64,000 nucleotides of DNA from contig CM069873.1 in NCBI GenBank assembly GCA_036172665.1, forward strand, positions 38,492,001 through 38,556,000. Reading direction: 5' to 3'. Positions 41,607 to 61,623 of this stretch are shown here, piece by piece. The translations under genes were made by a program, and so were the position numbers. Below the pieces are notes generated by a model that ran no database searches, had not been told where the DNA came from, and worked only from the letters and a program-made list of their open reading frames with translations. Position 1 is the first letter of the stretch. Each line of letters begins with the position of its first letter. This stretch comes from Prosopocoilus inquinatus (lineage: Eukaryota; Arthropoda; Insecta; Coleoptera; Lucanidae).

Positions 41607-41798
41607 GCGTTATTAAAAAAGTAATTTTTCATAAACCTGTCAACAAGAAAGTATCTATCAATGGTATAGATTGTACTGATACTTTAATTGAAAGAACGCT
41701 GAATATGGGAGATCAAATTTCGTTTTCTTGCACAGTTTTACTTTGTCCAACTACATTATTTGCTGAATTCATTATAAGAAAACGATATCTAACTGAAA

Positions 41799-42356
41799 AT
41801 GTCTAATCTATCTTTTAATGTAAAACGTGATGTTAATGAATTGCACAAACCAGCAAGGAAAAACTTTCGCCGTCGTCGAGTAATAATAAAAGGACTCCAG
41901 AGATCTCTTCCAAGCAGACTTAAATGAAATTCTGCCTTATTCCAAGATAAACAAAGGATACAAATACATTCAGACAGCGATCAACGCATTTTCTAAATAT
42001 GCTTGGAGAATACCTTTAAAAAGTAAGACAGGTAAAGAAGTAACCAAAGCTTTTCAATCGACTTTATCTGAAGGTAGAAATTCTATACCGAAAAATATAC
42101 AAACAGATAACGGAAAGGAATTTTACAATGCAGAGTTCCAAAATATAATGAAGAAATATAGAATTAATCACTATAGCACATACTTTAATTTAAAAAGTTC
42201 GATAGTCGAAAGATTTAATAGAACCTTAAAACAAAAGATGTGGAAAGAATTTAGCATGCAAGGAAATTTCGGATGATTTAATTTATTACCAAGGCTAATT
42301 GAAGAATACAATAACACTGTTCACAGTACCCAAACCCAGCAAAATAAATCAAAGAA
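41799..42356 (+). pseudogene. Integrase relic, copy B of the duplicated cassette
   Basis: Mirror of 18038-18600, with the same frameshift near 41900 and the same abrupt end at the truncated DUF8207-like gene. It differs from copy A by about two changes, including one base in an A run. Confidence 0.85.
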
Positions 42357-43034
42357 ATGCGCAAAGTATTTTACACTCCGCTTACAGCAACCTTAAAATT
42401 GTGGATCCAAGAATTGCAAAATTTAAAGTTGAAGATCATGTACGCATCAGAATCGTATCATCCGTTAGCACGTGATTATGTTACACGATTTGAAACTGAT
42501 GTAGAAAATGAATTCGATACAAAATACGGTGTAAGAGAAGAAGATGAGAGATTGTTTGTTGGGAACCAGGAGCTTAAGTTTGACGGTCCCGATCTTGTAA
42601 TTGGAGACTTGGCGTATAAGGGTACTAAAGGTTTATACGAGCTGGTTTTTAAGAAAAATCCAGAGAAATTTACGTTTCACGATGTGCGAGACTATAGAGA
42701 TATATTGAGAAGAACTAGTGCGTTTAAAGTTAATTATAATCCCTCAGGGCGAATATCTGCAAGCAGAGGATTTAAATATGTGAATATTATAAAACCAATA
42801 ATTCAGGGAAAACCACCAAACGTTTGGTGGGCGCGAAGCTGGAAAACAGGTGGAGCTTTGGAGAAAAAGCTTGTACATAACAAATGTTTGCAGTATCAAT
42901 ACTGGGATGATCCTAACGAACTAGTAGAACGATTGCGTTTATTGAACGCATCCAAATCAGCAGGTCACCCCGCACATAACAATGAAATCATAGCGATCAT
43001 TGAAGAATTAAAAGAGGCTAAAATTATTTTGTAA
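42357..43034 (+). pseudogene. Truncated DUF8207-like protein, copy B
   Basis: The encoded protein is identical to 17360-18037, including the false integrase-derived N-terminus, so both copies descend from one duplication event. Confidence 0.75.
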
Positions 43035-43102
43035 ATTGTAGTATTTAGTGGAGTGCAAGCGAGCACACATTTCAGTTTCACATAGTTGTTGATTGATTCA
43101 CA

Positions 43103-43486
43103 ATGACTATTGATAAGTTTGGAAGACACGTTCATAAACACACAGTTTTCAAACACATTGCTGCTACACCATTATTTTACGAAACATTATTAGACTTTCA
43201 GAGTCAAGAGCTTAACGCCGAAAGTGTATATTTGCTTTCAAATAGAGGTCACCGAACGACATATACGGTCCAAGAAACTTGCGTTGTTAAAAAAGTACTT
43301 ATTCATCAACCTACTATTGTCAACATTACAGTATCCATCAGCGCTATAAATTGTACTGATACTTTAATTGGAAGAACGCTGAATGTGGGAGATCAAATCT
43401 CGTTTACTTGCACATCTTCAGTTTGTGCAGTTCCATTATTTGTTGAATTCATCGTAAGAAAACGAGTTCTAACTGAAAATGTCTAA
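43103..43486 (+). CDS. Small unknown Polinton protein (127 aa), copy B
   Basis: Protein identical to 16908-17291. It overlaps the integrase start by 8 nt (43479-43486, ATGTCTAA). Confidence 0.8.
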   Translation: MTIDKFGRHVHKHTVFKHIAATPLFYETLLDFQSQELNAESVYLLSNRGHRTTYTVQETCVVKKVLIHQPTIVNITVSISAINCTDTLIGRTLNVGDQISFTCTSSVCAVPLFVEFIVRKRVLTENV

Positions 43487-44423
43487 TCTATCTTCTAATG
43501 TGAAACGTGATGTTGTTAATGAGTTGCACAAACCAGCAAGGAAAAACTTTCGCCGTCGTCGAGTAATAATAAAAGGACTCGGAGATCTCTTCCAAGCAGA
43601 CTTAATTGAAATGCTACCTTATGCCAAGATAAACAAAGGATACAAATACATTCTGACAGTGATCAACGCATTTTCCAAGTATGCTTGGGGAATACCATTA
43701 AAAAATAAGACAGGTAAAGAAGTAACCAAAGCTTTTCAATCGATTTTATCTGAAGGTAGAAATTCTGTACCGAAAAATATACAAACAGATAACGGAGAGG
43801 AATTTTACAATGCAGAGTTCCAAAATTTAATGAAGAAATATAGAATTAATCACTATAGCGCATACTCTAATTTAAAAAGTTCGATAGTCGAAAGATTTAA
43901 TAGAACCCTAAAACAAAAAATGTGGAAAGAATTTAGCATGCAAGGAAATTTCGGATGGTTCAATTTATTACCAAAGCTAATTGAAGAATACAATAACACT
44001 GTTCACAGTACGACGGGTTACAAACCCAGCAAGATAAATCAAAGAAATGCGCAAAGTATTTTACAGTCCGTCTACAGCAACCTTAAAATTGTGGATCCAA
44101 GAATTGCAAAATTTAAAATTGGAGATCATGTGCGCATCAGTAAATACAGACAAGCATTTTCGAAGATGTACCCTCCGAATTGGTCCAACGAAATATTTAC
44201 TATTTCGTCGGTGCAGAATACTAATCCCAGAACATATCTAATTAAAGACGCTGATGGTGAAGCCATTCTTGGTGTGTTTTATGAGTACGAGTTACAAAAA
44301 GTGAAACATCCAGATATACATTTAATTAATGTATTGAGAAAGAAAGGTAATAAAGCGCTTGTAAGTTATTTAGGATTGAGTTCTAAACATGATTCAAGGA
44401 TACCAAAACGCAATGTTTTATAA
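43479..44423 (+). CDS. Polinton integrase, intact, copy B
   Basis: 314 residues, identical to the copy A integrase, with the full DDE core (FQADL, TDNGEEF, IVERFNRT) and C-terminal domain. Two intact, identical integrase genes in one locus are unusual for such decayed elements. Confidence 0.92.
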   Translation: MSNLSSNVKRDVVNELHKPARKNFRRRRVIIKGLGDLFQADLIEMLPYAKINKGYKYILTVINAFSKYAWGIPLKNKTGKEVTKAFQSILSEGRNSVPKNIQTDNGEEFYNAEFQNLMKKYRINHYSAYSNLKSSIVERFNRTLKQKMWKEFSMQGNFGWFNLLPKLIEEYNNTVHSTTGYKPSKINQRNAQSILQSVYSNLKIVDPRIAKFKIGDHVRISKYRQAFSKMYPPNWSNEIFTISSVQNTNPRTYLIKDADGEAILGVFYEYELQKVKHPDIHLINVLRKKGNKALVSYLGLSSKHDSRIPKRNVL

Positions 44424-44533
44424 TAAATATTTATTAACTACAACTGTAATCATACTATACCCAGAATACACAATAAATGAATTTTACAAATTAATTTATT
44501 TACTTTCTAGCAGAACTTATAAATAAAAATACT

Positions 44534-45411
44534 TTATTTATTTTCTAATTCTTTTTCCAATTTTTCAATTAGTTCTTTTAGTTTTTTATCTCTTTCTATA
44601 TCAGCAATTTTATGGTGACCCCACGCCAGAGTATGAATTTTGTCATTTTGTCAACGTTTATCGTTTTTCGATGATAAGGCAATCTTATTTGTCAACTCTG
44701 TATACACCGTATGAAAATCCGAGTGAAACACGTACATCTTTTTAAAAATAAAACCATCTCGTTCAATGATTTCTTTGTAGTCATTTACAGTTAAGTCTTT
44801 ATCTATAACGTATTTTTTAACAACTTTTGCTTTCTTAGTACATTTTGAAATAAGCTTTACACAGTAGGCTTTCGCACCGGTCCCGATAAAAGATTCTATG
44901 ATCTGTTCTGCGTATTCGTCTTTAAATCGTCCAATAACTGATTCAGTTCGAGGCATTTCATGTATATTATTCGGTGGGTAATTTGAAGTATCAAATTTAT
45001 CTAAATTTTGCTTTATGTCATCGTATACATTATCAGTATTAACGGTCAGTATTAAACTATCCGTATCAGTATATAATAAAGCTGCTCTATTGTTATATTT
45101 TCGCTTTATAAAGTTGTAATAAAAATCGTACATTACTGTTTTTGATATTTCCAAAACAAAACTCTTCGTATAAAGGTTTATTATAATTTACTTGTACTTT
45201 GGATAATTCTACTGCGGTCAGGTGATCACTAAAAATTTTACTCGACTTATAGTTTTCCAAACATTGTTTCAGATTTAAATAGTGAATTATGTATTTCCTT
45301 TTGTTGTACAGATTTGGAATAAGTTTACCATATTTCGAATTTGGTGGAATTATGTTTTCCGGACAAAATGGTAATTCGTTGTGGTTGTCATGTAAATGAG
45401 TCGGGTATTCC
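44534..45411 (-). pseudogene. Polymerase B C-terminal fragment, copy B
   Basis: Mirror of 14983-15860. It carries motif C (LLYTDTDSL) and shares the internal TGA of copy A before the C-terminal tail. Near 45385 it has a GAA codon where copy A has a TAA, so copy A acquired that stop. Similarity ends sharply at 45411, where another integrase relic begins. Confidence 0.88.
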
Positions 45412-45420
45412 TCGATATCT

Positions 45421-46316
45421 AACTGAAAATGTCTAATCTATCTTCTAATGTAAAACGTGATGTTAATGAATTGCACAAACCAGCAAGGAAAAACTTTCGC
45501 CGTCGTCGAGTAATAATAGAAGGACTCCAGAGATCTCTTCCAAGCAGACTTAAATGAAATGCTGCCTTATTCCAAGATAAACAAAGGGTACAAATACATT
45601 CAGATAGTGATCAACGCATTTTCTAAATATGCTTTGGGAATACCTTTAAAAAATAAGACAGGTAAAGAAGTAACCAAAGCTTCTCAATCGATTTTATCTG
45701 AAGGTAGAAATTCTCTACCGAAAAATATACAAACATAACGGAAAGGAATTTTGCAATGCAGAGTCCCAAAATTTAATGAAGAAATATAGAATTAATCACA
45801 ATAGTACATACTCTAATTTAACAAGTTCGATAGTCGAAAGATTTAATAGAACCCTAAAACAAAAATGTGGAAAGAATTTAGCATGCAAGGAATTTTTAGA
45901 TGGCTCAAGAATACAATAACACTGTTCACAGTACGACGGGCTACAAACCCAGCAAGATAAATTAAAGAAATGCGCAAAGTATTTAACACTCCGTCTACAG
46001 CGACCTTAAAATTGTGGATCCAAGAATTGCGAAATTTAAAGTTGAAGATCATGTACGCATCAGAAAGTACAGACAAGCATTTTCGAAAATGTACACTCCG
46101 AATTGGTCCAACGAAATATTTACCATTTCGTCGGTGCAGAATACTAATCCCAGAATATATCTAATTAAAGAAGCTGATGGTGAAGCTATTCTTGGTGGGT
46201 TTTATGAGTACGAGTTACAAAGAGTGTTGAGAAAAAAAGGTAAAAAGACGCTTCTAAGTTATTTAGGATTGAGTTCTAAACATGATTCATGGATACCAAA
46301 ACGCAATGTTTTATAA
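45421..46316 (+). pseudogene. Third integrase relic
   Basis: Homologous to the integrase from its first codon to its last (ends at the NVL stop, 46316), but with several frameshifts, small deletions and a missing block near 45900. The C-terminal part is legible (RIAKFKVEDHVRIRKYRQAF, EADGEAILGGFYEYEL). No counterpart in copy A. Confidence 0.85.
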
Positions 46317-46379
46317 TACATATTTATTAATTACTACTGTAAACATACAATACTCACAATAAATGAATTTTACAAATTT

Positions 46380-46560
46380 ATTTACTTTCTAACAGAACTT
46401 ATAAATGAAATATAATTTTTCAATTAGTTCTTTTAGTTTTTTATCTCTTTCTATATCAGCAATTTTATGGTGACCCCACGCCAGAATATGAATGTCATTC
46501 AAAATATAACGTTTATCGTCTTTCGATGATAAGACAATTTTATTTTTCATCTCTGTGTAC
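46380..46560 (-). pseudogene. Polymerase B extreme C-terminus, second fragment
   Basis: Diverged copy of the polymerase tail (the TLAWGHHKI coding region on the minus strand around 46460). It follows the third integrase relic as in the intact arrangement and ends abruptly near 46560. Confidence 0.7.
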
Positions 46561-47211: not shown

Positions 47212-47505
47212 TGTTACGTTTCTAGGGTTTAAATTAATTTATTTAATCGAATAAAACACTCGGTAAAAACTTAACCGTAATATAATAATGCTTACAATCT
47301 AATTTATTCGTAATAATTTATTTACACACTAAATCCAACTTCGACGATCGTTAATTAGAACTCGACTGGCTCCTGAGTCCGCCCAGGCCGATTTTATATT
47401 CTACGCTGCTTTCTCGTTTATTCCATGCTGGAAAAGTCGAGTTTGCCCGGCGACCGACTCCTTGACGCCTTCAGTGTGACGTAGTGAGCTAAGTGGCGCG
47501 CCGCA
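47212..47505 (-). repeat. Diverged LTR of the macrodomain gypsy family
   Basis: On the minus strand it begins TGCGGCGCGCCAC and ends CCCTAGAAACGTAACA, clearly homologous to the LTR at 59693-60000 (same end, same ACTACGTCAC and GACGGCGT-like blocks, TATAAAATCG promoter-like segment) but with many differences. It is separated from the coding end of the nearby element by about 108 bp, so it may be a solo LTR or a rearranged 3' LTR. Confidence 0.82.
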
Positions 47506-47612: not shown

Positions 47613-48617
47613 TTACACTATTTTTTTTAAGAAGGGGGCAGTTCTTAAAAACGTTTCGTCTCGAAATGTTCCAGGTGATAGTCTTGAAGGAGGATGTCGG
47701 AATCTACATGCTGGCCCATTCTTGAAACTTCCCGTCTGGAAGAAGTAGCAGTCTACGGTTTTGCTGTTGCTGACTGTTTCCTGTGGGTGGTGGCTGCAGA
47801 CTAGGACTTCAATTCCCGTTCTGTGGAAGATGACTTCCAGCATGCTTCGAATTACTCTCCAGTCTAGTCCGTCCAATCCGCAGCCCAATTTGGGGATAGC
47901 TAACTTCATCTGGTGGTTCTCTATTAACTGTCTCCTCAGGCTACATAGGGCTCTCCACATATTTTGATAGTCAGGTTTACCGCTTGATGTCTTCTTAGTG
48001 ACTAAATAATGCACGTGGCGCCTACGATCTGCCGTCGAATCGATGATATGCAGGCTCTTGCCTACCACGGGATGCTGTCTTCGGAGCTCCTCGATTTGGC
48101 CAAATTTCTTCTTAAACACCTGAGCAATTCCTTTGGACATTTTCAGGTCTTCTGCTACGCAGTGGGCCAGACTGTACTCCAGTGGCACTTTAAAGAGATC
48201 TTGTTGCTTCTCCGTGGTCACTCCAAAGCGTGCCTTACTTCCTTTGGTGTGATGAGACATGAAGGTCATTTCGGAAACTTGCGCCCTTTGTACTGTCCCT
48301 TCATCTGCTTTTCCATGGTAAGGGGCTACCCGGTTGAAGTGGATTACTTTGGGTTTGCCATGGGGGAGCTTCTTGATGCGGTAAACGACGTCGTTGATCC
48401 GTTTCATCACTTTGTAAGGACCTTCCTAAGAGGTCTGCAGTTTTGGGGACAGGCCTCGACGTCTTTGGGGGTTATAAAGCCAGACCAGTGCTCCAGGTTG
48501 ATATCCCCCGTTCTGAGCGTTGATGTCATAGTGCTCCTTCATCCGATCGCTGGCCGTCTGTATATTGTGACGCACTTGGTTGTGGATGTCGTCCATTTTC
48601 CTGCGTAATTTGCTCAC
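47613..48617 (-). pseudogene. Gypsy pol C-terminus: integrase tail, TARG1-like macrodomain, CCCH finger
   Basis: One reading frame with a single TAG at 48426-48428, in the integrase C-terminal SH3-like part (PKLQTS, stop, EGPYKVMKRI). Counted from the Met at 48410, residues 1-33 finish the integrase tail (VIHFNRVAPYHG). Residues 76-207 form a macrodomain of the OARD1/TARG1 type: LAHCVAEDLKMSKGIAQVFK, then HYLVTKKTSSGKPDY with the Lys pair at 139-140, and AIPKLGCGLDGLDW with Asp180. In human TARG1 the Lys and Asp at these places are catalytic for ADP-ribose ester removal. A C-X7-C-X5-C-X3-H finger follows (Cys221, position 229, Cys235, His239); here position 229 is Phe, while the fragment at 59483 keeps Cys. 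Confidence 0.85.
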
Positions 48618-48619
48618 GT

Positions 48620-49040
48620 AATCTTCGTCGGCAGACTTCGCCAGGCTTCACACCAAACTTCAGGTCGCAGGGCAGTCTCGGCTCTCGCCGGAATACCACT
48701 TTCGCCGGAGTCTCCCCTGTTGTCTCATGAACAGACGAGCGGTATGCCATTAGAAACTCAAAAGGATTTCCATCGTTGTACTGTCTCATGAGAGCCTTGT
48801 CCCGTCTGTGGAGGCCGTTACTGGCTGCGCAGACTGCATACCTTTTGCACCAATCCTTCACGTATTCCTTGCAGTTCACCCAGTAAAATCTTTCGCGCAC
48901 CTTCTCCATAGTCTTCTTAATTCCCAGATGCCCTCCCGAAGTTACGTCGCGAAGTTCCCTCAGAACTTCTGGCACCCTATTGTTGGGGATTAGTAACTGT
49001 GTCTTCTGTTCCATGCCTTCCTGATTCTCTTGCTTCGTCT
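48620..49040 (-). pseudogene. Integrase zinc-binding region joined to post-core region (core deleted)
   Basis: Shows the HHCC zinc-binding part (TSGGHLGIKKTMEKVRERFY, CKRYAVCAASN) and then jumps from MRQYNDGNPFE to FLMAYRSSVHETTGETPA. Compared with copy 2 the whole DDE core is missing at about 48763. A downstream frameshift follows near 48640. Confidence 0.85.
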
Positions 49041-50516
49041 CAGAAGACCACGATCCAACACTATGGAGTCCCAATGCGCCCAGTATGATTTTACGCACGA
49101 TGCACATGGTGCTACCTCTTCCCAGGTAGGCCTCGCGTCCCTGCTTTTCCATTCTAGCACTAATTTCAAATCCGGATCGTTCTCTTGGTCTCTTCGCAGT
49201 TCTTCGGCTTGCCATTTGTCGTCAACAATGGCTGTCCTCGCAGTCGTGGCTACTTTCTCGTCCAAACGACTACAGTGCTTACAGTCTTCGGCACAGGGTC
49301 TTCTCGACAAAGCATCGGCATTTCGATGGCTAGTTCCTGCCCGATGCTGAATTTCAAAATCGTACTCCTGAAGTCGTTCGATCCATCGTGCAACTTGGCC
49401 TTCTGGGTTCTTGAAACGGAGAAGCCATTTTAGAGCGGCGTGGTCGGTCCTCAGCAGGAAGCGTCTACCATACAAGTACTTGTAGAAGTGTTCTATCGTT
49501 TTTACGACGACTAGCAATTCCCTTCTTGTGACGCAATAGTTTCGTTCCGGCTTTGATAGGACTTTACTGAAGTAGCCGATCACCTTCTCTTGCCCCTCTT
49601 GTATCTGGGAGAGTACCCCACCGATCCCAACGTTGCTAGCATCTGTATTCACGACGAATTTGCCTTCCGGGACAGGATAACTCAGAATAGGAGCACTAAT
49701 CAAGTACTGCTTTAGTTGTTCAAAGCCAATTTGACACTGTTGATCCCATTCAAATGGACGACCTTCTTCAGTGAGTTTTGTCAACGGCTTAGCAATGTCT
49801 GCAAATCCAGGAACGTAGCGCCGATAGTAAGTGCACAGGCCAAGGAAACTCCTTATTTGGTGTTTATTTCTGGGAGTTGGCCAGTCTTTCACAACCTGAA
49901 TCTTCACAGGGTCCACGGCGATTCCATTTCCATTAACAATGTGCCCCAGGTAATTCACTTCCTTCTGGAACAGGTGACACTTCTTGAGGCTAAACTTTAG
50001 TCCAGCTCCGCGAAGCCGCTGGAACACTCCTTCCAGGTTCCTTAGGTGGTCGTCGAACGTTTTTCCCACGACAATTATGTCGTCAAGGTACACCATGCAC
50101 GTTGTCCAGGACAGACCTTTCAGAACCGTCTCCATTAACCTCTCGAATGTCGCTGGGGCATTACATAACTCGAATGGCATCACTGTGAACTGCCACAGAC
50201 CCATACCAATGGAAAAAGCCGTCTTTTTTCGATCTTCAGGCACCAGCTCCACTTGCCAATATCCACTCTTTAAGTCCAAAGTTGAGAAGATCTTTGAGCC
50301 GACCAGGGTGTCCAGGGTATCATCAATCCATGGCAGGGGATAGCTGTCCTTCTTGGTGACATTGTTGACTAACCGGTAGTCTACACAGAACCTGGTGGAC
50401 CCATCCTTCTTCTTCACAAGCACTACTGGTGACGCCCACGGGCTGCTTGATGGTTCTATTACATTATCCTTTTCCATCTCGCGAATAATGTGTTCCGCTA
50501 CCTCACTCTTCGTCAA
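48990..50516 (-). CDS. Macrodomain gypsy copy 1: reverse transcriptase and RNase H
   Basis: 508 codons in one frame. RT has STRFCVDYRLVNN (about 40-52), FSTLDLKSGYWQVEL and catalytic MVYLDDIIVV (Tyr-Leu-Asp-Asp at 143-146). The connection domain has SFLGLCTYYRRYVP, and RNase H has VVNTDASNVGIGGVLS (Asp292) and RNADALSRRP. The C-terminus runs on out of frame into the integrase region. The catalytic palm is complete here but deleted in copy 2. Confidence 0.92.
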   Translation of the reverse strand: MTKSEVAEHIIREMEKDNVIEPSSSPWASPVVLVKKKDGSTRFCVDYRLVNNVTKKDSYPLPWIDDTLDTLVGSKIFSTLDLKSGYWQVELVPEDRKKTAFSIGMGLWQFTVMPFELCNAPATFERLMETVLKGLSWTTCMVYLDDIIVVGKTFDDHLRNLEGVFQRLRGAGLKFSLKKCHLFQKEVNYLGHIVNGNGIAVDPVKIQVVKDWPTPRNKHQIRSFLGLCTYYRRYVPGFADIAKPLTKLTEEGRPFEWDQQCQIGFEQLKQYLISAPILSYPVPEGKFVVNTDASNVGIGGVLSQIQEGQEKVIGYFSKVLSKPERNYCVTRRELLVVVKTIEHFYKYLYGRRFLLRTDHAALKWLLRFKNPEGQVARWIERLQEYDFEIQHRAGTSHRNADALSRRPCAEDCKHCSRLDEKVATTARTAIVDDKWQAEELRRDQENDPDLKLVLEWKSRDARPTWEEVAPCASCVKSYWAHWDSIVLDRGLLRRSKRIRKAWNRRHSY

Positions 50517-51553
50517 CGGTAATCGCCTTGGAACTTGACGGGATAGGTCTTTCTTCTCCAGTCTCTATTTTGTGTTTCACGAAATCAGTTCTTCCCTTGG
50601 ATCCATTTTCTACCTCGAATACATCTTGATAGCGGCCGATCAGATTCTTTGCTTTTGTCGTCTGGTCTGGAGTCAATTTCTGGGCTGACATAATCATTTC
50701 CCATAAGTTCGTTGGGACTTTCGCTTCTGGCACGTTTGTTTCAAGTTGGCGGGAGATGGAGGACACCATGGTGCAGCTTCCTAAGGTGGTTCCATTCTTG
50801 ATATTGACGGAGAAACAATTGACGTTCATCAGGCGGACAGGTACTTCCTTCTTCGCCGTCAACAACATTTTCCCAACGAAGACTCCTCTTCCAATCTTCT
50901 GATCATCAGTATTAGGTTCAACCATAATGACTTGCCCATCTTGAAAAACACCGTCCAGTTTTGCATCGACGATAACCTGAGTCCTGCTGGGTAATAAAAC
51001 GTCTTCAGCGAGGACTACTCGAGCGGCCACGTCTCCTCGTTGATGTAGAACCAACTCCTCATTATTGACCGCCATCACGCCACGCTTTAAGTCCAATTGA
51101 AACCCGTGGGCACACATGACGTCCATGCCCAAAATTGCCTCGTCCTCTATGTCTGCTACCAGTGCACGGTGTTTTATTGGAGTTGGTGATGATAACCTCT
51201 ACTTCACTGTGGACAGTTGCTGATGTTCCATTTGCAGTTTTCAGTCTCCACTTGGTCGGCTCGGTGCGTCCAGATGACTTGATGACGTCGTGTCTTAGGA
51301 TGGTATTCGTCGCACCCGTATCCAACAACATGGTGTGAGGAATGTCACCAATGGTAACATCCACGAAGACACTGCTGGTTAACTGCCGTAGGGATATTAC
51401 TTGTTTGGATTTCGTCTTTGGGGGCCTTTGAATACGGGTCGACGTTCGCCCCTCTGCACCGACCCGGCTTAGTTTAACTGTGGCTTCCTTAGATCCTGTC
51501 TGGGCTTCGGACATCGCCTGCGAACATGTCCTTCCTCCTGGCAATTCCAACAC
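50503..51553 (-). pseudogene. Macrodomain gypsy copy 1: aspartic protease and pol N-terminus
   Basis: Retropepsin with FVDVTIGDIPHTMLLDTGAT (active site DTGA, about 51320) and, after a frameshift near 51170, ILGMDVMCAHGFQLDLKRG. A linker follows up to the RT, which is reached only by another frameshift near 50540. Same frameshifts as copy 2 where comparable. Confidence 0.85.
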
Positions 51554-52702
51554 ACCAGCGGCTTCTTCTGCTTGAAGACCTGTTCCACAATGCGGCGAAC
51601 ATCCTCGGCGGTGGTATATTCCCTGGGTCGCTCATTTATAGCAGATCCTACCTTGAAGTTAGCGGATTCTTCCTCTTCTTCCTCTTGGAAGTCCATAGCC
51701 GCTCGCACCTTGACATGCCCTCTTAAGACTCGTCTCGCCGCTTCAAATTCCAAGGCATAAGCCAATGCGTTCTTGGACGTCTTGGGATGGGTCATTCTCA
51801 ATGCCTGCTGGTGTCTGGGTCACGGATTCCATCTATGAAGGTCTGCACCGTCAAACATTTGAGGAATTCAACAGGAGCTGTGGGATATGCTAACTGGGCC
51901 AGACGCGCTACGTCCGCTTCGAATTCCTGAAGACTTTCTCCGGATTTCTGACAGCGATTTCTCAACTGCGCATGGTATACCTCGATGAGATGGGCCTGTC
52001 CTTAACGCATTTCCATCCTATTCACCAGCTTGTCGAAGTCTTCTTGTTCCTCTGGCGGCATCGTCTGTAGCACATCGATAGCGTCCCCTCTCAAGGCCAC
52101 AATTAACGAAGTGGCTTTTTCGCTGGCCGTCCATCTGTTCGCCCTTGCTGCTGCTTCTGTTTGAAGTAGTTGGGCCAAGAAGACTTTCCATCGAACGTTG
52201 GTGGTTTTATTTCTAATTTCGAATTTTCTGCTGGCCCTTCCACAATTCGGGTTTCATTATTTTCTAGTGTTTCTACTGGTGGCTGATTCCCGAACACTCA
52301 CAACCCCGCCATGATTTCTTCCAGATTTTTGATTTTGTTATCCTGCTGGAATATTATTTCTTCCACATTTTCTTGCAGGTTCCTTGTTTCTTCCGATATT
52401 TTTTCCACTAGTTTATCTTCGAGTCCTTTTGTTTGTTCTAGAAATTTCGACGAGAAATTTCTAGATTGCTCTCGAAATTTCTCGTCTAAGTCTCTAGATT
52501 GTTCCAACAATTTATTCTGTAATTTGTCCAAATTTCCAGATTGTTCTAGAAGCTTCTCCTCTAAATTTCTGGATTGTTCTCGAAGTTCGTCCTTGAAATT
52601 TCCAGATTGTTCTAGAAGCTTTTCCTCTAAATTTCGGGATTGTTCTCGAAATTCATCCTTCAAGATTTTATTAAAACTATGGCGTGTACTTATTTCAATC
52701 AT
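51469..52702 (-). pseudogene. Macrodomain gypsy copy 1: gag, broken
   Basis: The N-terminal part (52702-52298) is an 11-residue repeat coiled coil (FREQSRNLEEK type), with seven units here. After a TGA come KPPTFDGKSSWPNYF and retroviral-type gag sequence in other frames, and a zinc knuckle CWNCQEEGHVRRRC (about 51530). Lesions shared with copy 2 are the TGA at 52298-52300, a small deletion after NYFKQ, a TAA at 52002-52004 and a lost base near 51815. The SAP domain seen in copy 2 is absent because the copy is truncated. Confidence 0.85.
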
Positions 52703-52775
52703 ATCCTCAGTAATTACACAGAAACTACGTTAAGTCGCATAAAAAATAATATTCTTAAAGAATCCAACGCATTTT

Positions 52776-53128
52776 CAGTAATAACCACGGAGCTCAATGC
52801 AACTCATGTCAGCCACGTTACAACTGGAATAATACGTGCCTCGCGTTGTATGTACGGTTGGTTCACGATGGTTATCGAAGATACATTACTGTAATCAGAG
52901 TAAATAAATGATAAATGTAGAGTAAAAGTCACGAACTTTGAATATTGAATACTACTCAATATTCAAAGTTCGTGACTTTTACTCTACATTTATCATTTAT
53001 TTACTCTGATTACAGTAATGTATCTTCGATAACCATCGTGAACCAACCGTACATACAACGCGAGGCACGTATTATTCCAGTTGTAACGTGGCTGACATGA
53101 GTTGCATTGAGCTCCGTGGTTATTACTG
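52776..53128. repeat. Perfect 353-bp palindrome (173-bp arms, 7-nt loop)
   Basis: Arms 52776-52948 and 52956-53128 are exact inverted copies around atactac. Non-coding. No target duplication found. Could be a young foldback duplication or a sequencing or assembly foldback. Confidence 0.93.
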
Positions 53129-53390
53129 TAAATTTTATTCATAGTGTAAAAAATTTACACAAGAGTTTTTACTCTAAATATTATACCAAGCATGTTTATA
53201 CAGGAAAAATTTCTTACTGTGTAAGTATTAAGAATAAGTACTTTAAAAGTAAATTAAATACTTACTGGTAAAATAAATGTACATATAAAAAAATAATTCA
53301 AGAAGATTGTAAACTTATGTATAATAGTTGTTGTGTCAATAAACATTTTTTATATTTAATTCACAGATGTGTTGTTTAAATAGGTGCAGA

Positions 53391-55559: not shown

Positions 55560-56720
55560 TTAAATTAGCAAAAAGGTGCAGGTTCGAGAGCTCATTAAGA
55601 AACCATTTTATTCCATACTTGTCATGGCCAACTTGGTTAAAATTTTACAAAAACCAAAATCTCCTAATTTTTTTCTTCTTGGAACACCTATGGGTGCTAA
55701 TATATCTCCATTTATTGCTCAGTATGTTATGGATGATTTATTATTGAATGCATACCAAAGTTATCATTTCAAATTCCTGGGCTCAAAAAATATGTTGATT
55801 ATATTATTTGCGTAGTTCCCCAACAAGGTACTGAGGACATTTTAACGGTTTTTAACAATTATAATCCTAATATTCAATTTACTATTGAAAAGGAAACAGA
55901 CAGGAATGTTCCTTTCTTGGACACGAAAGTTATTCCTTCAGAAAACAATAAAATCATTATTGATTGGTACACGAAACCTTTTAGTTCTGGGCGTTATATT
56001 AACTTTCATTCTTGTCATCCATATAAAATGAAAATTAACATGATTTTAGGATTAAAAAATCATATAGAAAAGATTTCTCATCCTTCTTTGTTGAATAAAA
56101 ACTTACACAAATTAAAAAATATTCTCATAAAAAATAGCTATCCTTTTGCAATGCTAAATAAGTCAATTTTCAACACTCAACAAAGAATAGAACCTATTTC
56201 TCAAATTAATAATAATTCACAAACAATTAATGTTGGTAAAGTTTTTAGATCTTTAATATTCATACCAAATCTTACATCTCTACTAATGAAAGTACTAAAA
56301 AATAAAAACATTCAGATTGCAACTAAAAATTTATTAACAATTAAGTCTCTTTTTACAAAAGTTAAAGATCCATTTAACAAATTCAAACAAATTAATTCTA
56401 TTTATGAAATTCCTTGTCATGATTGTGATTCTGTTTATATTGGCCAAACATCAAGAACTATTCATTCGAGAATTATTTCTCATAAAAGTGATATTAGACT
56501 TAGACCTAATGCTTGTGCTTTATCTGAACATGCCAATAACGAAGACCATAAGATTAATTTTGAAGATGCAAAAATTTTAGATATAGAACCAATTTTGAGT
56601 CAAAGACTTTTTATTGAAATGTGCCATATTTTTTGTAATTAAAAAGTATCAACAAAAGAACTGATATTGAGAAACTTAGTTGTATTTATACTTACCTATT
56701 AAATTTTAAAACTAAAAAGA
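55560..56720 (+). pseudogene. Penelope-like retroelement: RT C-terminus and GIY-YIG endonuclease
   Basis: RT blocks NFFLLGTPMGANISPFIAQY and VMDDLL, then a frameshift near 55790 into a YVDY-containing block where the second catalytic Asp of YVDD is Tyr. Then RNVPFLDTKVIPSENNKI, IDWYTKPFSSGRYINFHSCH and the GIY-YIG nuclease part IPCHDCDSVYIGQTSRTI, ending near EMCHI with a shift. The 5' half is missing. Dead fragment next to the long-TIR element. Confidence 0.88.
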
Positions 56721-57445: not shown

Positions 57446-58915
57446 ACAACTTATATCTTTTTATTGTTCTATTCGATAGCATTTTTTTCTCCTGATTGTA
57501 ACGGTATATGACACTTAATAGTTGATATTAATCTGAAGCTTAAATAATACAGATTTTTATGTGAAAATTTTATTTAATACATAATTTCAAATTTTTAGTT
57601 CGTTTTCTTAGATATAGTGTAAATTATAATAAACTATTTAAAGTTTTTCTGTATCGTTGTTTTAATAATGCACTGCACTTACGAAAATGAATTTTTACCG
57701 AAAAATATCTAGTGGTTCTAATACAACTTGCTAGATCAGTATCTCAGCTTTAGTATAGGAATGAAAAGGCCTAGTTTTTAATTTTGACTCGCACTGTTGG
57801 ATTAAAAGAAAAAGTGAATACTAATTATACTAAAAATATTTAGATATTACTGAATAGTGCCTTTTACAAATACATTGGCAGCTAAAACGAATACTTTTGT
57901 AATAAATTTGAAAGATACTTTCTATAACAATGTATTTTTTTTTATTTCTTTAGAACTCAGTGGCTCTCAACACTTGACTATCTTTATTTTATTTTTTAAA
58001 TATGGTTAAGTTCACTCGTTTTAACCAGTTGAAGTTTGGCACGTTATATCGGAACCACCATCTATAATTTAAACAGGATAAAGTAGGCTTTATATTTTCG
58101 ACATTGAAACAGTGACTATCATTAAGATAAATAATAAGGAGAAACTAAGAAGGCGAATATTAGATTCTTACAGAAATGTTTCGCGAATTCATGTTCGACA
58201 CACTATAAAATAAATAAAGAACAGAATAAATAAGTTGAATAAAAATTATAGACGAAGAACATGACTCTGAAATAAATAAAGTGAAATAAATAAATTAAAG
58301 TAAATCCTCGAAATGTCCTCCACTGCTTTCAAGACACAGATTCGTTCTTAATCCTATGTGTTGTCATAGGATTAAGAACGAATCTGTGTCTTGAAAGCAG
58401 TGGAGGACATTTCGAGGATTTACTTTAATTTATTTATTTCACTTTATTTATTTCAGAGTCATGTTCTTCGTCTATAATTTTTATTCAACTTATTTATTCT
58501 GTTCTTGTAATTTAATATGTTTATACTGATTTTTATTTGGTTTGTGTTAACCACCTCATATCATTTAGTCAATATTTATTGACTTTTCCTCTTCCGACAA
58601 CTAAATGTTGTTGCTAATACTTAACAAATAAAAAAAGAGGTTAGGAAGAGATTTACTTATTAAGAAAAACATGACGAAACGATATCAGTTTTTTTGTTAT
58701 ATTCCAACTTTACTTGAAAAAAAGGTATTAAGTATTATACTCACTGAAATCAAAAGAAAAGGAACAAAAAATGTGAAATTATGAATTAAATAAAATTTTC
58801 ATATAAAATCTAAATTATTTAAGCTTCAAATTAATATCGACTATAAAGTGTGATATATCATTGTAATCAGGAGAAAAAATGCTATCGAATAGAACAATAA
58901 AAAGACATAAGTTGT
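57446..58915. mobile_element. Element with ~150-bp inverted ends enclosing a perfect palindrome
   Basis: The left end (acaacttatatctttttatt) and the inverted right end (acaacttatgtctttttatt) stay similar for about 150 bp on each side. The interior is non-coding and contains the palindrome 58217-58506. Superfamily unknown. Confidence 0.65.
58217..58506. repeat. Perfect 290-bp palindrome (142-bp arms, 6-nt loop)
   Basis: Arms 58217-58358 and 58365-58506 are exact inverted copies around tgttgt. Non-coding. Confidence 0.93.
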
Positions 58916-59385: not shown

Positions 59386-59692
59386 TGTGGCCAGCCACTC
59401 AGCACTACGTCACGCTGAAGGCGTCAAGAATTCTCCAAATTGGGCTGCGGATTGGACGGACTAGTGGAGAGTAATTCGAAGCATGCTGAAAGTCATCTTC
59501 CACAGAACGGGAATTGAAGTCCTAGTCTGCAGCCACCACCCACAGGCAACAGTGAGCAACAGCAAAACCGGTGACTGCTACTTCTTCCAGACGGGAAGTT
59601 GCAAGAATGGGGCAGCTTGTAGATTCCGACATCCTCCTTCAAGACTATCACCAGGAACATTTCGAGACGAAACGTTTTTAAGAAGGGGGCAG
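59386..59692 (+). pseudogene. Deletion derivative of the macrodomain gypsy: LTR start joined to pol 3' end
   Basis: The first 45 bp (59386-59430) are the start of the LTR, then a jump into the macrodomain (KLGCGLDGL coding, about 59434). A 2-nt loss follows, then the frame TGIEVLVCSHHP and an intact CCCH finger (Cys-X7-Cys-X5-Cys-X3-His, CYFFQTGSCKNGAACRFRH). The polypurine tract aagaagggggcag abuts the LTR at 59693. The frame stays open through it and stops in the LTR at 59723-59725. Confidence 0.88.
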
Positions 59693-60000
59693 TGTGGCGA
59701 GCCACTCAGCACTACGTCACGCTGAAGGCGTCAAGAAGTCGGTTCATTATTATGCGTTATCGGCCGTCACGCCACCATCGAACAAACTCGAATTCTCCAG
59801 CTTGGAAAATTCGAGACGGCAGCAAAGGATATAAAATCGACCGGAGTTGACTCAGGAGTCAGTCGAATTCTAACAGCGATCGTCGAAGTTAGATTTTAGT
59901 GTGTAAATAAATTGTTACAAATAAATTAGATTGTAAACATTATTAAATTACGGTGTTTTATTCGTGTAAATAAATAAATTTAAACCCTAGAAACGTAACA
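59693..60000 (+). repeat. LTR of the macrodomain gypsy (308 bp)
   Basis: Begins TGTGGCGAGCC and ends GAAACGTAACA, with a TATAAAATCG promoter-like segment near 59830. It serves as 3' LTR of the short derivative and 5' LTR of copy 2. A TGG-starting primer-site candidate (tggtgtcggtgtgcggg) follows at 60002. Confidence 0.9.
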
Positions 60001-60098
60001 GTGGTGTCGGTGTGCGGGTTTGTGCAAATAAATAAACAATTTAAAATAAATTAAACTTAATCAGATTATTAAATAAGTACAGTATCGGAAAAAAAACA

Positions 60099-60794
60099 AT
60101 GGCTACGAGAAAAGTGTTGTTGAAAGACTTAAAAGTGGCCGAATTAAAAACCGAATTGGAAGAACGAGAGTTAGAAACCTGTGGTTTGAAAGGCGTACTT
60201 CAACAGCGTCTCCGATGCGATTTGTTGACAGCTGGTGAAGATCCAGAGACGTTCCTTTTCGAAATTTCGTGTGGTCCCGCCGATTTTAATAAAATCTTGA
60301 AGGATGAATTTCGAGAACAATCCAGAAATTTGGACGAGAAGTTTCAAGGACAATCTGGAAATTTCAAGGACGAACTTCGAGAACAATCCAGAAATTCGGA
60401 CGAGAAGTTTCTAGAACAATCTGGAAATTTCAAGGACAAACTTCGAGAACAATCAAGAAATTTGGACGAGAAGTTTCTAGAACAATCTGGAAATTTCAAG
60501 GACGAACTTCGAGAACAATCGAGAAATTTAGAGGAGAAGCTTCTAGAACAATCTGGAAATTTGGACAAATTACAGAATAAATTGTTGGAACAATCTAGAG
60601 ACTTAGACGAGAAATTTCGAGAGCAATCTAGAAATTTCTCGTCGAAATTTCTAGAACAAACAAAAGGACTCGAAGATAAACTAGTGGTAAAAATATCGGA
60701 AGAAACAAGGAACCTGCAAGAAAATGTGGAAGAAATAATATTCCAGCAGGATAACAAAATCAAAAATCTGGAAGAAATCATGGCGGGGTTGTGA
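60099..60794 (+). CDS. Macrodomain gypsy gag N-terminus: SAP domain and 11-residue repeat coiled coil
   Basis: 231 codons. Residues 5-42 (LLKDLKVAELKTELEEREL, TCGLKGVLQQRL) form a SAP-type DNA-binding motif. Residues about 68-195 consist of eleven 11-residue units (FREQSRNLDEK / FLEQSGNFKDE), a hendecad pattern expected to give a long coiled coil. The frame ends at a TGA (60792-60794), with the rest of gag in the same frame after it, so the TGA is either a nonsense mutation or a readthrough site. Copy 1 has the same TGA. Confidence 0.8.
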   Translation: MATRKVLLKDLKVAELKTELEERELETCGLKGVLQQRLRCDLLTAGEDPETFLFEISCGPADFNKILKDEFREQSRNLDEKFQGQSGNFKDELREQSRNSDEKFLEQSGNFKDKLREQSRNLDEKFLEQSGNFKDELREQSRNLEEKLLEQSGNLDKLQNKLLEQSRDLDEKFREQSRNFSSKFLEQTKGLEDKLVVKISEETRNLQENVEEIIFQQDNKIKNLEEIMAGL

Positions 60795-61623
60795 GTGTTC
60801 GGGAATCAGCCACCAGTAGAAACACTAGAAAATAATGAAACCCGAATTGTGGAAGGGCCAGCAGAAAATTCGAAATTAGAAATAAAACCACCAACGTTCG
60901 ATGGAAAGTCTTCTTGGCCCAACTACTTCAAACAGAAGCAGCAGCAAGGGCGAACAGATGGACGGCCAGCGAAAAAGCCACTTCGTTAATTGTGGCCTTG
61001 AGAGGGGACGCTATCGATGTGCTACAGACGATGCCGCCAGAGGAACAAGAAGACTTCGACAAGCTGGTGAATAGGATGGAAATGCGTTAAGGACAGGCCC
61101 ATCTCATCGAGGTACACCATGCGCAGTTGAGGAATCGCTGTCAGAAATCCGGAGAAAGTCTTCAGGAATTCGAAGCGGACGTAGCGCGTCTGGCCCAGTT
61201 AGCATATCCCACAGCTCCTGTTGAATTCCTCAAATGTTTGACGGTGCAGACCTTCATAGATGGAATCCGTGACCCAGACACCAGCAGGCATTGAGAATGG
61301 CCCATCCCAAGACGTCCAAGAACGCATTGGCTTATGCCTTGGAATTTGAAGCGGCGAGACGAGTCTTAAGAGGGCATGTCAAGGTGCGAGCGGCTATGGA
61401 CTTCCAAGAGGAAGAAGAGGAAGAATCCGCTAACTTCAAGGTAGGATCTGCTATAAATGAGCGACCCAGGGAATATACCACCGCCGAGAATGTTCGCCGC
61501 ATTGTGGAACAGGTCTTCAAGCAGAAGAAGCCGCTGGTGTGTTGGAATTGCCAGGAGGAAGGACATGTTCGCAGGCGATGTCCGAAGCCCAGACAGGATC
61601 TAAGGAAGCCACAGTTAAACTAA
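60795..61623 (+). pseudogene. Macrodomain gypsy copy 2: gag C-terminus with zinc knuckle
   Basis: VEGPAENSKLEIKPPTFDGK and SSWPNYF in the first frame. Then a frameshift, a TAA at 61088-61090, a lost base near 61290, and a last piece with ALEFEAARRVLRGHVKVRAA and the knuckle CWNCQEEGHVRRRC (about 61540). Confidence 0.85.

What the first reader, a model, noticed from the sequence alone, without database searches (positions are those of the whole stretch)
47613..48617. Ty3/gypsy pol fused to a TARG1-like macrodomain and a CCCH zinc finger
Downstream of the integrase tail, in the same frame, lies a macrodomain with the TARG1/OARD1 pattern (CVAEDLKMSKGIA, TKKTSSGKP, LGCGLDGLDW), keeping the Lys and Asp that are catalytic in TARG1, followed by a C-X7-C-X5-C-X3-H finger. 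The same block recurs at 59434-59690 directly before an LTR, so it belongs to the element family. A retrotransposon that carries an ADP-ribose hydrolase could strip ADP-ribose from its proteins or DNA ends, countering PARP-type host defence or aiding integration. I am not aware of this fusion as a described retroelement architecture.
Basis: partly seen in the sequence, partly recalled or inferred. Interest (0 to 1): 0.92.

Follow-up and report, generated by a model that had tools for sequence, protein, structure and literature searches.

The report
Retrotransposons carrying a TARG1-like ADP-ribose hydrolase
A family of jumping genes in beetles carries, fused to the enzyme that pastes it into chromosomes, a domain that looks like a working eraser of ADP-ribose marks, and other jumping-gene lineages carry the same kind of domain at other places in their proteins, which hints that host cells put such marks on these elements.

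Summary
The fusion is real. Window 47616-48425 (minus strand) reads integrase GPY/F tail, TARG1/OARD1-type macrodomain with catalytic Lys and Asp, CCCH-like motif. This copy is broken (integrase core deleted, frame shifted, one finger Cys now Phe); its family is not. In the window's genome, a beetle's, 38 of 40 copies sampled by reverse transcriptase alone carry the domain; 5 of 7 LTR pairs checked are identical; variation in the domain shows purifying selection (N/S per site 0.15, p 3.5e-12). Among 120 listed database integrases, 22 of 26 at 67% identity or more carry it and 0 of 93 more distant ones do: one gain on an ordinary Ty3/gypsy integrase. Beyond the finding, Ty3/gypsy elements of four RT lineages carry TARG1-like macrodomains at four places in pol; one origin for all is rejected (AU p 0.003). 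The host TARG1 gene is separate. The likeliest role is removal of ADP-ribose from the element's cDNA ends, RNA or proteins: inferred, not shown. My searches found no Ty3/gypsy report; fish endogenous retroviruses with macro-domain ORFs are the nearest precedent.

The parts
47616..48425 (-). ORF of 270 codons: integrase GPY/F tail, linker, TARG1-like macrodomain, degenerate CCCH motif
47799..48221 (-). TARG1-like macrodomain (residues 69-209 of the ORF); catalytic Lys codon at 47994-47996, catalytic Asp codon at 47871-47873
   Evidence: PDB phmmer match residues 69-209; residue numbers K144 and D185; model; coordinates computed by hand from the ORF
48315..48425 (-). integrase C-terminal GPY/F module (Integrase_p58_C)
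47694..47750 (-). CCCH-like motif, second Cys replaced by Phe in this copy
48529..49221 (-). integrase H2C2 zinc-binding part; catalytic core missing from this copy, other frame than the macrodomain
   Evidence: compared by eye with P0039
48993..50564 (-). reverse transcriptase and RNase H
51065..51631 (-). protease region (LLDTGATNTIL, motif recognised by eye; Pfam not run on this frame)
51472..51819 (-). Gag nucleocapsid part with CCHC knuckle
47212..47399 (-). LTR remnant of this copy (82% to an LTR of the main family)
59465..59725 (+). 3' end of a second copy: C-terminal part of the macrodomain and an intact C-X7-C-X5-C-X3-H motif
59725..60000 (+). LTR sequence after the second copy (76% to an LTR of the main family)
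60045..60791 (+). Gag N-terminal part of the next copy: SAP domain and 33-nt tandem repeats
61273..61620 (+). Gag CCHC knuckle of the copy that starts at 60045

Best explanation
The window holds damaged copies of a recently active Ty3/gypsy LTR retrotransposon family of beetles (type A) whose Gag-Pol ends in an extra TARG1-type ADP-ribosyl hydrolase, often followed by a CCCH finger, added once behind the GPY/F module of an ordinary integrase. The domain is kept by selection with its catalytic Lys and Asp. Most likely it travels with the polyprotein, or with the integrase cut out of it, and removes ADP-ribose that host PARP-type enzymes place on the element's own cDNA ends, RNA ends or proteins during reverse transcription and integration; behind integrase it would sit at the cDNA ends in the intasome. 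Shown here: sequence, predicted fold, catalytic residues, in-frame fusion, family-wide presence, purifying selection, recent copies, and TARG1-like domains at four positions in pol across four RT lineages. Inferred: enzymatic activity, substrate, release by protease, and benefit to the element.
For: Fold and residues: TARG1 is the best solved match by sequence and by structure; catalytic Lys in 205 of 207 and Asp in 204 of 207 macrodomain rows of at least 85% coverage (207 of 245 rows; hosts and near copies included). Family: 138 of 142 scored places in the genome have no stop in the matched stretch; 38 of 40 RT-sampled copies have the domain. Recent copying: seven copies with long open frames all have LTR pairs and 4-bp target duplications, 5 of 7 LTR pairs identical. 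Selection: median dN/dS 0.13 over 297 type A pairs; 37 synonymous against 21 nonsynonymous distinct variants on 89 and 331 sites in 26 copies. Single gain: integrase tree, clade of 29 rows (SH-aLRT 99), 25 with macro. Hydrolase rather than mere tether: Lys and Asp are kept although the domain sits at four places in pol, only one of them behind integrase. TARG1 is reported to reverse PARP3 MARylation of DNA ends, ADP-ribosylation of RNA ends, and thymidine-linked ADP-ribose, Lys84 being the catalytic residue (passages of PMC8385414 and PMC8501950).
Against: No activity, expression or substrate was tested, and I know of no beetle PARP that acts on retroelements (no search was made for one). The window's own copy is defective. 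Three sequences of this kind lost Lys or Asp (P0011, P0038, P0043), 4 of 29 rows of the type A integrase clade lack the domain, and 1 of 40 sampled copies (L096) has none at the expected place with a second, L092, displaced, so it is not strictly needed for a copy to persist. The selection test pools related copies of one genome, chosen partly for open frames. Type B pairs show weaker constraint (median dN/dS 0.46).
Confidence: 0.55

Rival explanations
1. Chromatin tether: the macrodomain reads ADP-ribose or poly-ADP-ribose on chromatin at breaks or in active regions and steers integration there, as chromodomains behind integrase are thought to do in chromoviruses (recalled).
For: In types A and D the domain sits behind GPY/F, the place where chromodomains sit; one record (P0163) has integrase core, chromodomain and macrodomain in a row.
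Against: Catalytic Lys and Asp are kept almost everywhere, which binding alone would not need. In types B, C, E, F and G the domain lies between PR and RT, between RNase H and IN, or before PR. Seven target duplications show only an AT-rich preference; sites were not compared with chromatin.
Confidence: 0.17
2. Counter-defence in the cytoplasm: the enzyme acts on element RNA or Gag in the particle, removing ADP-ribose placed there by host enzymes, as macrodomains of alphaviruses and coronaviruses do; the place behind integrase is incidental.
For: Position in pol varies while the active site is kept; the CCCH finger and Gag zinc knuckle suggest contact with RNA (inference); viral macrodomains bind or remove ADP-ribose and affect disease (search listing, starts of abstracts of PMC5156301 and PMC7018654); TARG1 reverses ADP-ribosylation of RNA ends (passages).
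Against: No PARP-type antiviral enzyme of beetles was examined; the best sequence kin is TARG1, with reported DNA activity, rather than viral macrodomains.
Confidence: 0.22
3. Passenger: a captured host fragment without function that happens to be copied along.
For: Some members lack it (4 of 29 rows), and the copy at 47616-48425 is damaged.
Against: Purifying selection, p 3.5e-12; Lys and Asp kept across about 50% divergence; TARG1-like domains in four RT lineages, one origin rejected.
Confidence: 0.03

Closest known systems
TARG1/OARD1 (C6orf130), macrodomain ADP-ribosyl hydrolase
   Same: Predicted fold (TM 0.95), 38% identity, catalytic Lys and Asp, LAHC, TKK and GCGLD motifs
   Different: TARG1 is a cellular gene; here the domain is part of Ty3/gypsy Gag-Pol. 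The insect TARG1 clade with 19 of the 24 rows I labelled host, all ten beetle rows among them, holds no retroelement row.
412 / K02A2.6-like Ty3/gypsy elements (names as given by some database records)
   Same: Same RT, H2C2, integrase core and GPY/F by precomputed Pfam; mostly 55-66% integrase identity
   Different: Their integrase mostly ends 20-39 residues after the aligned part; none of the 93 compared carries the macrodomain there or elsewhere in the record
Chromoviruses (Ty3/gypsy with chromodomain)
   Same: Accessory domain behind the integrase end (recalled)
   Different: Other domain, with an enzyme active site; one unnamed record (P0163) has both
Fish epsilon-like endogenous retroviruses with macro-domain ORFs (Basta et al. 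2009, not seen; only as cited in a passage of PMC4977317)
   Same: A retroelement that bears a macro domain
   Different: Described there as additional open reading frames of fish retroviruses; no TARG1 assignment or fusion to Ty3/gypsy pol is stated in the passage read; their sequences were not compared
DarG macrodomain of bacterial DarTG
   Same: Structural match with E 4e-10; removes ADP-ribose from DNA with the equivalent catalytic Lys (passages)
   Different: 26% identity; antitoxin of bacteria

Membership tests
TARG1/OARD1 macrodomain subfamily | Closest to TARG1 among solved macrodomains | tested here: met
   phmmer E 4e-30 for TARG1 against 8e-6 for the next macrodomain, 5m3i, named DarG; Foldseek ranks 1-8 all TARG1/C6orf130
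TARG1/OARD1 macrodomain subfamily | Catalytic Lys (Lys84 in human TARG1) and the active-site Asp | tested here: met
   K144 and D185 in the window copy; 205 and 204 of 207 rows. Lys84 from PMC8501950 passages; the role of the Asp (Asp125) is recalled, the look-up for it in that paper gave no hit
TARG1/OARD1 macrodomain subfamily | Hydrolysis of Glu/Asp-linked or nucleic-acid-linked ADP-ribose | not testable with these tools
   needs purified protein
Ty3/gypsy LTR retrotransposon | Order PR-RT-RNaseH-IN with H2C2 and GPY/F | tested here: met
   (in pieces; P0133 for the whole order)
Ty3/gypsy LTR retrotransposon | LTRs with TG...CA ends, polypurine tract, short target duplication | tested here: met
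   7 of 7 copies examined: LTR 326-347 bp, TGTGG...AACA, purine-rich tract, 4-bp duplication
Ty3/gypsy LTR retrotransposon | tRNA primer binding site | not tested
   sequence after the 5' LTR was seen but not matched to a tRNA
CCCH zinc finger | C-X7-9-C-X4-6-C-X3-H | tested here: inconclusive
   Broken in the copy at 47616-48425, intact at 59465-59725; present with GPY, macro, Lys and Asp in 28 of 40 RT-sampled copies and in 15 of 26 type A records with a macrodomain; Pfam zf-CCCH 15.3 bits against a cut-off of 20.5 in the broken copy
Chromovirus | Chromodomain behind integrase | tested here: not met
   No Chromo match in the window ORF (E up to 1) or in the type D piece L025 (E up to 0.01)

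The most novel reading that the evidence does not exclude
TARG1-type ADP-ribosyl hydrolases were taken up repeatedly by Ty3/gypsy retrotransposons of insects and perhaps other animals, in at least four RT lineages and at four positions in pol, because hosts ADP-ribosylate retroelement cDNA, RNA or proteins as a defence. The elements thereby reveal a general, undescribed ADP-ribosylation-based restriction of LTR retrotransposons.
Probability: 0.3. Interest if true: 0.95.

Novelty: new variant of a known kind. Interest (0 to 1): 0.86.

Why it matters
Some viruses carry macrodomains that undo host ADP-ribosylation. Finding catalytically conserved TARG1-type domains in LTR retrotransposons, under selection where tested, in several lineages and at different places in pol, suggests that ADP-ribosylation meets retroelements strongly enough to favour an eraser. 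That makes a direct question testable: which molecule of a retrotransposon is ADP-ribosylated, by which host enzyme, and at which step. The type A elements put the eraser beside the integrase and hence near the cDNA ends, matching the reported in vitro activity of TARG1 on DNA ends. It also warns annotators: beetle gene models named OARD1-like (P0032, P0038) or tropomodulin (P0164) are, in whole or part, pieces of such elements.

Tried and rejected
Rejected: a one-off host fragment; capture from this beetle's own TARG1 in recent time; one common origin of all retroelement macrodomains (AU p 0.003; three rows, P0047, P0048 and P0056, were added to that group after seeing the tree); one origin of all macrodomains behind integrase (AU p 0.018). 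Not rejected: one origin for those between PR and RT (AU p 0.26). Limits: the macrodomain tree has only 135 columns and the order of the retroelement clades is unresolved; 5 of 24 rows I labelled host (thrips P0144, P0153, P0155; mayfly P0165; mussel P0057) fall outside the insect TARG1 clade, on a weakly supported side with some retroelement rows (P0163, P0164, P0171, P0052, P0065). The label host rests on names and architecture, not on a check that each is a gene. A first guess that C4:18968482-18968835 was the host gene was wrong: it is a type C fragment. Paper searches without a report of this architecture in the listings: (of only 20 of 425 papers were listed; most listed papers were not opened; preprints and most subscription papers are not held).

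Full report
WHAT IS IN THE WINDOW. The finding lies on the minus strand. The frame 47616-48425 (270 codons) begins inside the integrase GPY/F module (Integrase_p58_C 43.7 bits), continues through a macrodomain and ends with a CCCH-like stretch. By sequence the macrodomain's five best solved matches are all human TARG1 (E 4e-30 to 8e-30; next macrodomain 5m3i, DarG, E 8e-6). The AlphaFold2 model (mean pLDDT 82.8, block means 90-98 across the domain) matches TARG1 chain 4j5s_C with TM 0.95 over the chain, rmsd 1.4 A and 38% identity. Lys144 and Asp185 correspond to the catalytic pair. Upstream on the same strand are H2C2, RT with RNase H, and a CCHC knuckle. The copy is damaged: the integrase core is missing (only H2C2 in Pfam; cut out when read beside P0039), the H2C2 part is in another frame, the finger's second Cys is Phe, and the sequence after the polypurine tract is rearranged. 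A second copy's 3' end (59465-59725, plus strand) has the intact C-X7-C-X5-C-X3-H motif, followed by LTR sequence (59725-60000) and the Gag start of another copy, which begins with a SAP domain (Pfam 31 bits, cut-off 23.9) and 33-nt tandem repeats.

THE FAMILY IN ITS GENOME. The window lies in a 650-Mb genome (173 contigs) of an unnamed species, by its host TARG1 a beetle. A search with the 270 residues gave 142 scored places out of 1799 candidates. Apart from the window copy and one at 99%, they are 93-95% identical to it; 138 of 142 have no stop in the matched stretch; the open frame around the match is at least about 1,400 aa in roughly 50 of 142 by my reading of the list, many near 1,950. 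That search selects for the domain. To avoid this, I searched with the RT alone (150 scored of 3747 candidates), took 40 of the 150 (every fourth row and three more), and read only the place where the domain should be: 38 of 40 have it, 36 at full length (at least 145 of 155 residues), 31 with GPY/F, macrodomain, Lys and Asp in one frame, 28 of these with the CCCH pattern as well. Of the two misses, L092 has a macrodomain nearer to the RT (one search lists C1:11944055-11944477), so it looks like an internal deletion; L096 has none at that place. Seven copies, chosen for open frames near 1,950 aa, were checked at their ends in pieces: LTRs of 326-347 bp with TG...CA ends, 4-bp target duplications in 7 of 7 by eye (ATAT in 4), LTR pairs identical in 5 of 7 and with one or two mismatches in the others. 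These insertions are recent.

SELECTION. Within type A, 297 pairs of copies with dS between 0.02 and 1.2 have a median dN/dS of 0.13, and 296 of 297 are below 1. Counted as distinct single-base variants against one natural copy (L021) among 26 copies with an open domain, 37 are synonymous and 21 nonsynonymous on 89 and 331 sites (N/S per site 0.15, binomial p 3.5e-12). Type B (43 pairs, median 0.46), B2 (5 pairs, 0.20) and C (1 pair, 0.33) are also below 1, B less strongly. Copies share ancestry, so the pairs are not independent, and copies without an open frame were not counted; the variant count is the better guide.

ONE GAIN IN TYPE A. A database search with the integrase part (3589 hits, best 120 listed) shows a sharp border. 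Among the listed proteins, 22 of 26 with integrase identity of 67% or more carry a macrodomain after GPY/F; of 93 with lower identity none does, and 90 of those 93 end 20-39 residues after the aligned region (the others: P0252 at 0, P0286 at 101, P0275 at 310); one truncated record (P0284) was set aside. In the integrase tree (70 rows, short search) the type A clade has 29 rows (SH-aLRT 99), 25 with the domain and 4 with short tails scattered inside (P0183, P0188, P0192, P0202), as expected for one gain followed by truncations or losses. Named relatives come from Aromia, Molorchus, Exocentrus, Callosobruchus, Leptinotarsa, Gonioctena, Pyrocoelia, Holotrichia and Diabrotica, all beetles to my knowledge, plus one record labelled Erysiphe pulchra that may be contamination. 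A CCCH pattern follows in 15 of the 26 type A records with a macrodomain; several others are truncated or seem to have lost it.

BEYOND TYPE A. Searching the genome with a flea TARG1 (P0045) gave 151 matches, many in long open frames unlike type A. Pieces of 20 of them, and database polyproteins, show TARG1-like macrodomains at four places in Ty3/gypsy pol: before the protease (P0168 and P0065; P0157 by its start at residue 27, its protease known only from the Pfam list); between protease and RT (types B and C of this genome, P0166, P0174; P0170 ends before any RT); between RNase H and integrase (P0164 of Leptinotarsa, annotated as tropomodulin isoform X2, and P0167 of Rhynchophorus; P0112 stops after the macrodomain); and behind integrase (type A, type D = L025, P0158, P0171, and P0163, where it follows a chromodomain). 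The RT tree (20 rows) splits these into four well supported lineages: A with L025 (96/96), B with P0164 and P0167 (95/93), C with P0166 and P0174 (98/98), and P0157/P0168 with P0158 (100/100); P0164 and P0167 are long branches. Three of the four lineages are in this genome; the fourth is known here only from unnamed records. In the macrodomain tree (102 rows, 135 columns) type A (95/90), B (89/87) and C (100/96) are each one side of a branch. An insect TARG1 clade (96/94) holds 19 of 24 rows labelled host, all ten beetle rows included, and no retroelement row; the three thrips, the mayfly and the mussel rows lie outside it, unresolved. Holding all retroelement macrodomains together is rejected (AU p 0.003), as is holding all those behind integrase together (p 0.018); B, C and the other PR-RT ones may be one (p 0.26). 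I read this as more than one capture, number unknown. The catalytic Lys is present in 205 and the Asp in 204 of 207 rows.

THE HOST GENE. A Tribolium TARG1 (P0148) found the host's own gene at C5:3752508-3753233: two matching stretches close together, the first ended by a stop with a GTAAAT at its end, so probably one short intron. The second stretch is 57-66% identical to the ten beetle TARG1 rows and at most 48% to any retroelement row. So the element's domain is neither a mis-assembled host exon nor a recent copy of it.

HOW IT PROBABLY WORKS. Shown: a TARG1-type domain with its active site, fused in frame, under selection, in recently copied elements. Inferred: it hydrolyses ADP-ribose. 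[quoted passage not shown] A linear cDNA with free ends is a plausible target of host PARPs, and a domain behind integrase sits near those ends; an ADP-ribosylated end should hinder 3' processing or strand transfer. That step is my inference. A chromatin tether is less likely because the active site is kept at positions far from integrase's end. Acting on RNA or Gag in the particle remains a real rival.

WHAT IS KNOWN. Nine paper searches gave no report of a macrodomain in Ty3/gypsy elements in the listings I saw; three papers were opened, in passages only. One review (PMC4977317, passage) cites Basta et al. 2009 for additional ORFs in fish epsilon-like endogenous retroviruses that encode macro-domain proteins, so a macro domain in a retroelement is not unheard of. 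The novelty lies in TARG1-type catalytic domains built into Ty3/gypsy pol, in several lineages and at several places, under selection where tested. Preprints and most subscription journals were not searchable.

Noticed in passing
window 60045-60791 (+): The Gag of this element family begins with a SAP domain (31 bits, cut-off 23.9) followed by 33-nt tandem repeats; related records from Bactrocera (P0263) and Gonioctena (P0284) also list SAP.
   Followed up: partly
database proteins P0149, P0151, P0160, P0064 (unnamed sources): TARG1-like macrodomain in one protein with DNA ligase III parts (zf-PARP, ligase, LIG3 BRCT; P0064 BRCT only), which fits a role of TARG1-type domains at DNA ends.
   Followed up: partly
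insect host TARG1 rows among database proteins P0122-P0169: Insect host TARG1 proteins found are long (554-1197 aa; that search only admitted such lengths) with no other Pfam family in the two scanned (P0127, P0148).
   Followed up: partly
window 41638-46493: Repeated degenerate blocks (spacing about 1.7-1.9 kb) with integrase-like ORFs and, on the minus strand at 44651-45437, a DNA polymerase B-like fragment (YTDTDS); looks like remnants of a Polinton/adintovirus-type element (by eye and recall).
   Followed up: no
window 55564-56642 (+): ORFs that look like a Penelope-like RT end with a GIY-YIG-type segment (by eye).
   Followed up: no
window 52771-53133 and 58217-58506: Two near-perfect palindromes: arms of 181 nt (99%) with a 1-nt spacer, and arms of 142 nt (100%) with a 6-nt spacer.
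   Followed up: no
database protein P0194: A type A element piece is recorded under the fungus Erysiphe pulchra; probably insect contamination of that assembly.
   Followed up: no
database proteins P0164, P0032: Leptinotarsa gene models named tropomodulin isoform X2 and ADP-ribose glycohydrolase OARD1-like isoform X2 contain retroelement pol parts with the macrodomain, so they are probably mis-annotated.
   Followed up: partly
database proteins P0173, P0176: Proteins of about 1,670 aa with a TARG1-like domain near residue 1290 and no Pfam family above cut-off; long branch inside the insect TARG1 clade.
   Followed up: no
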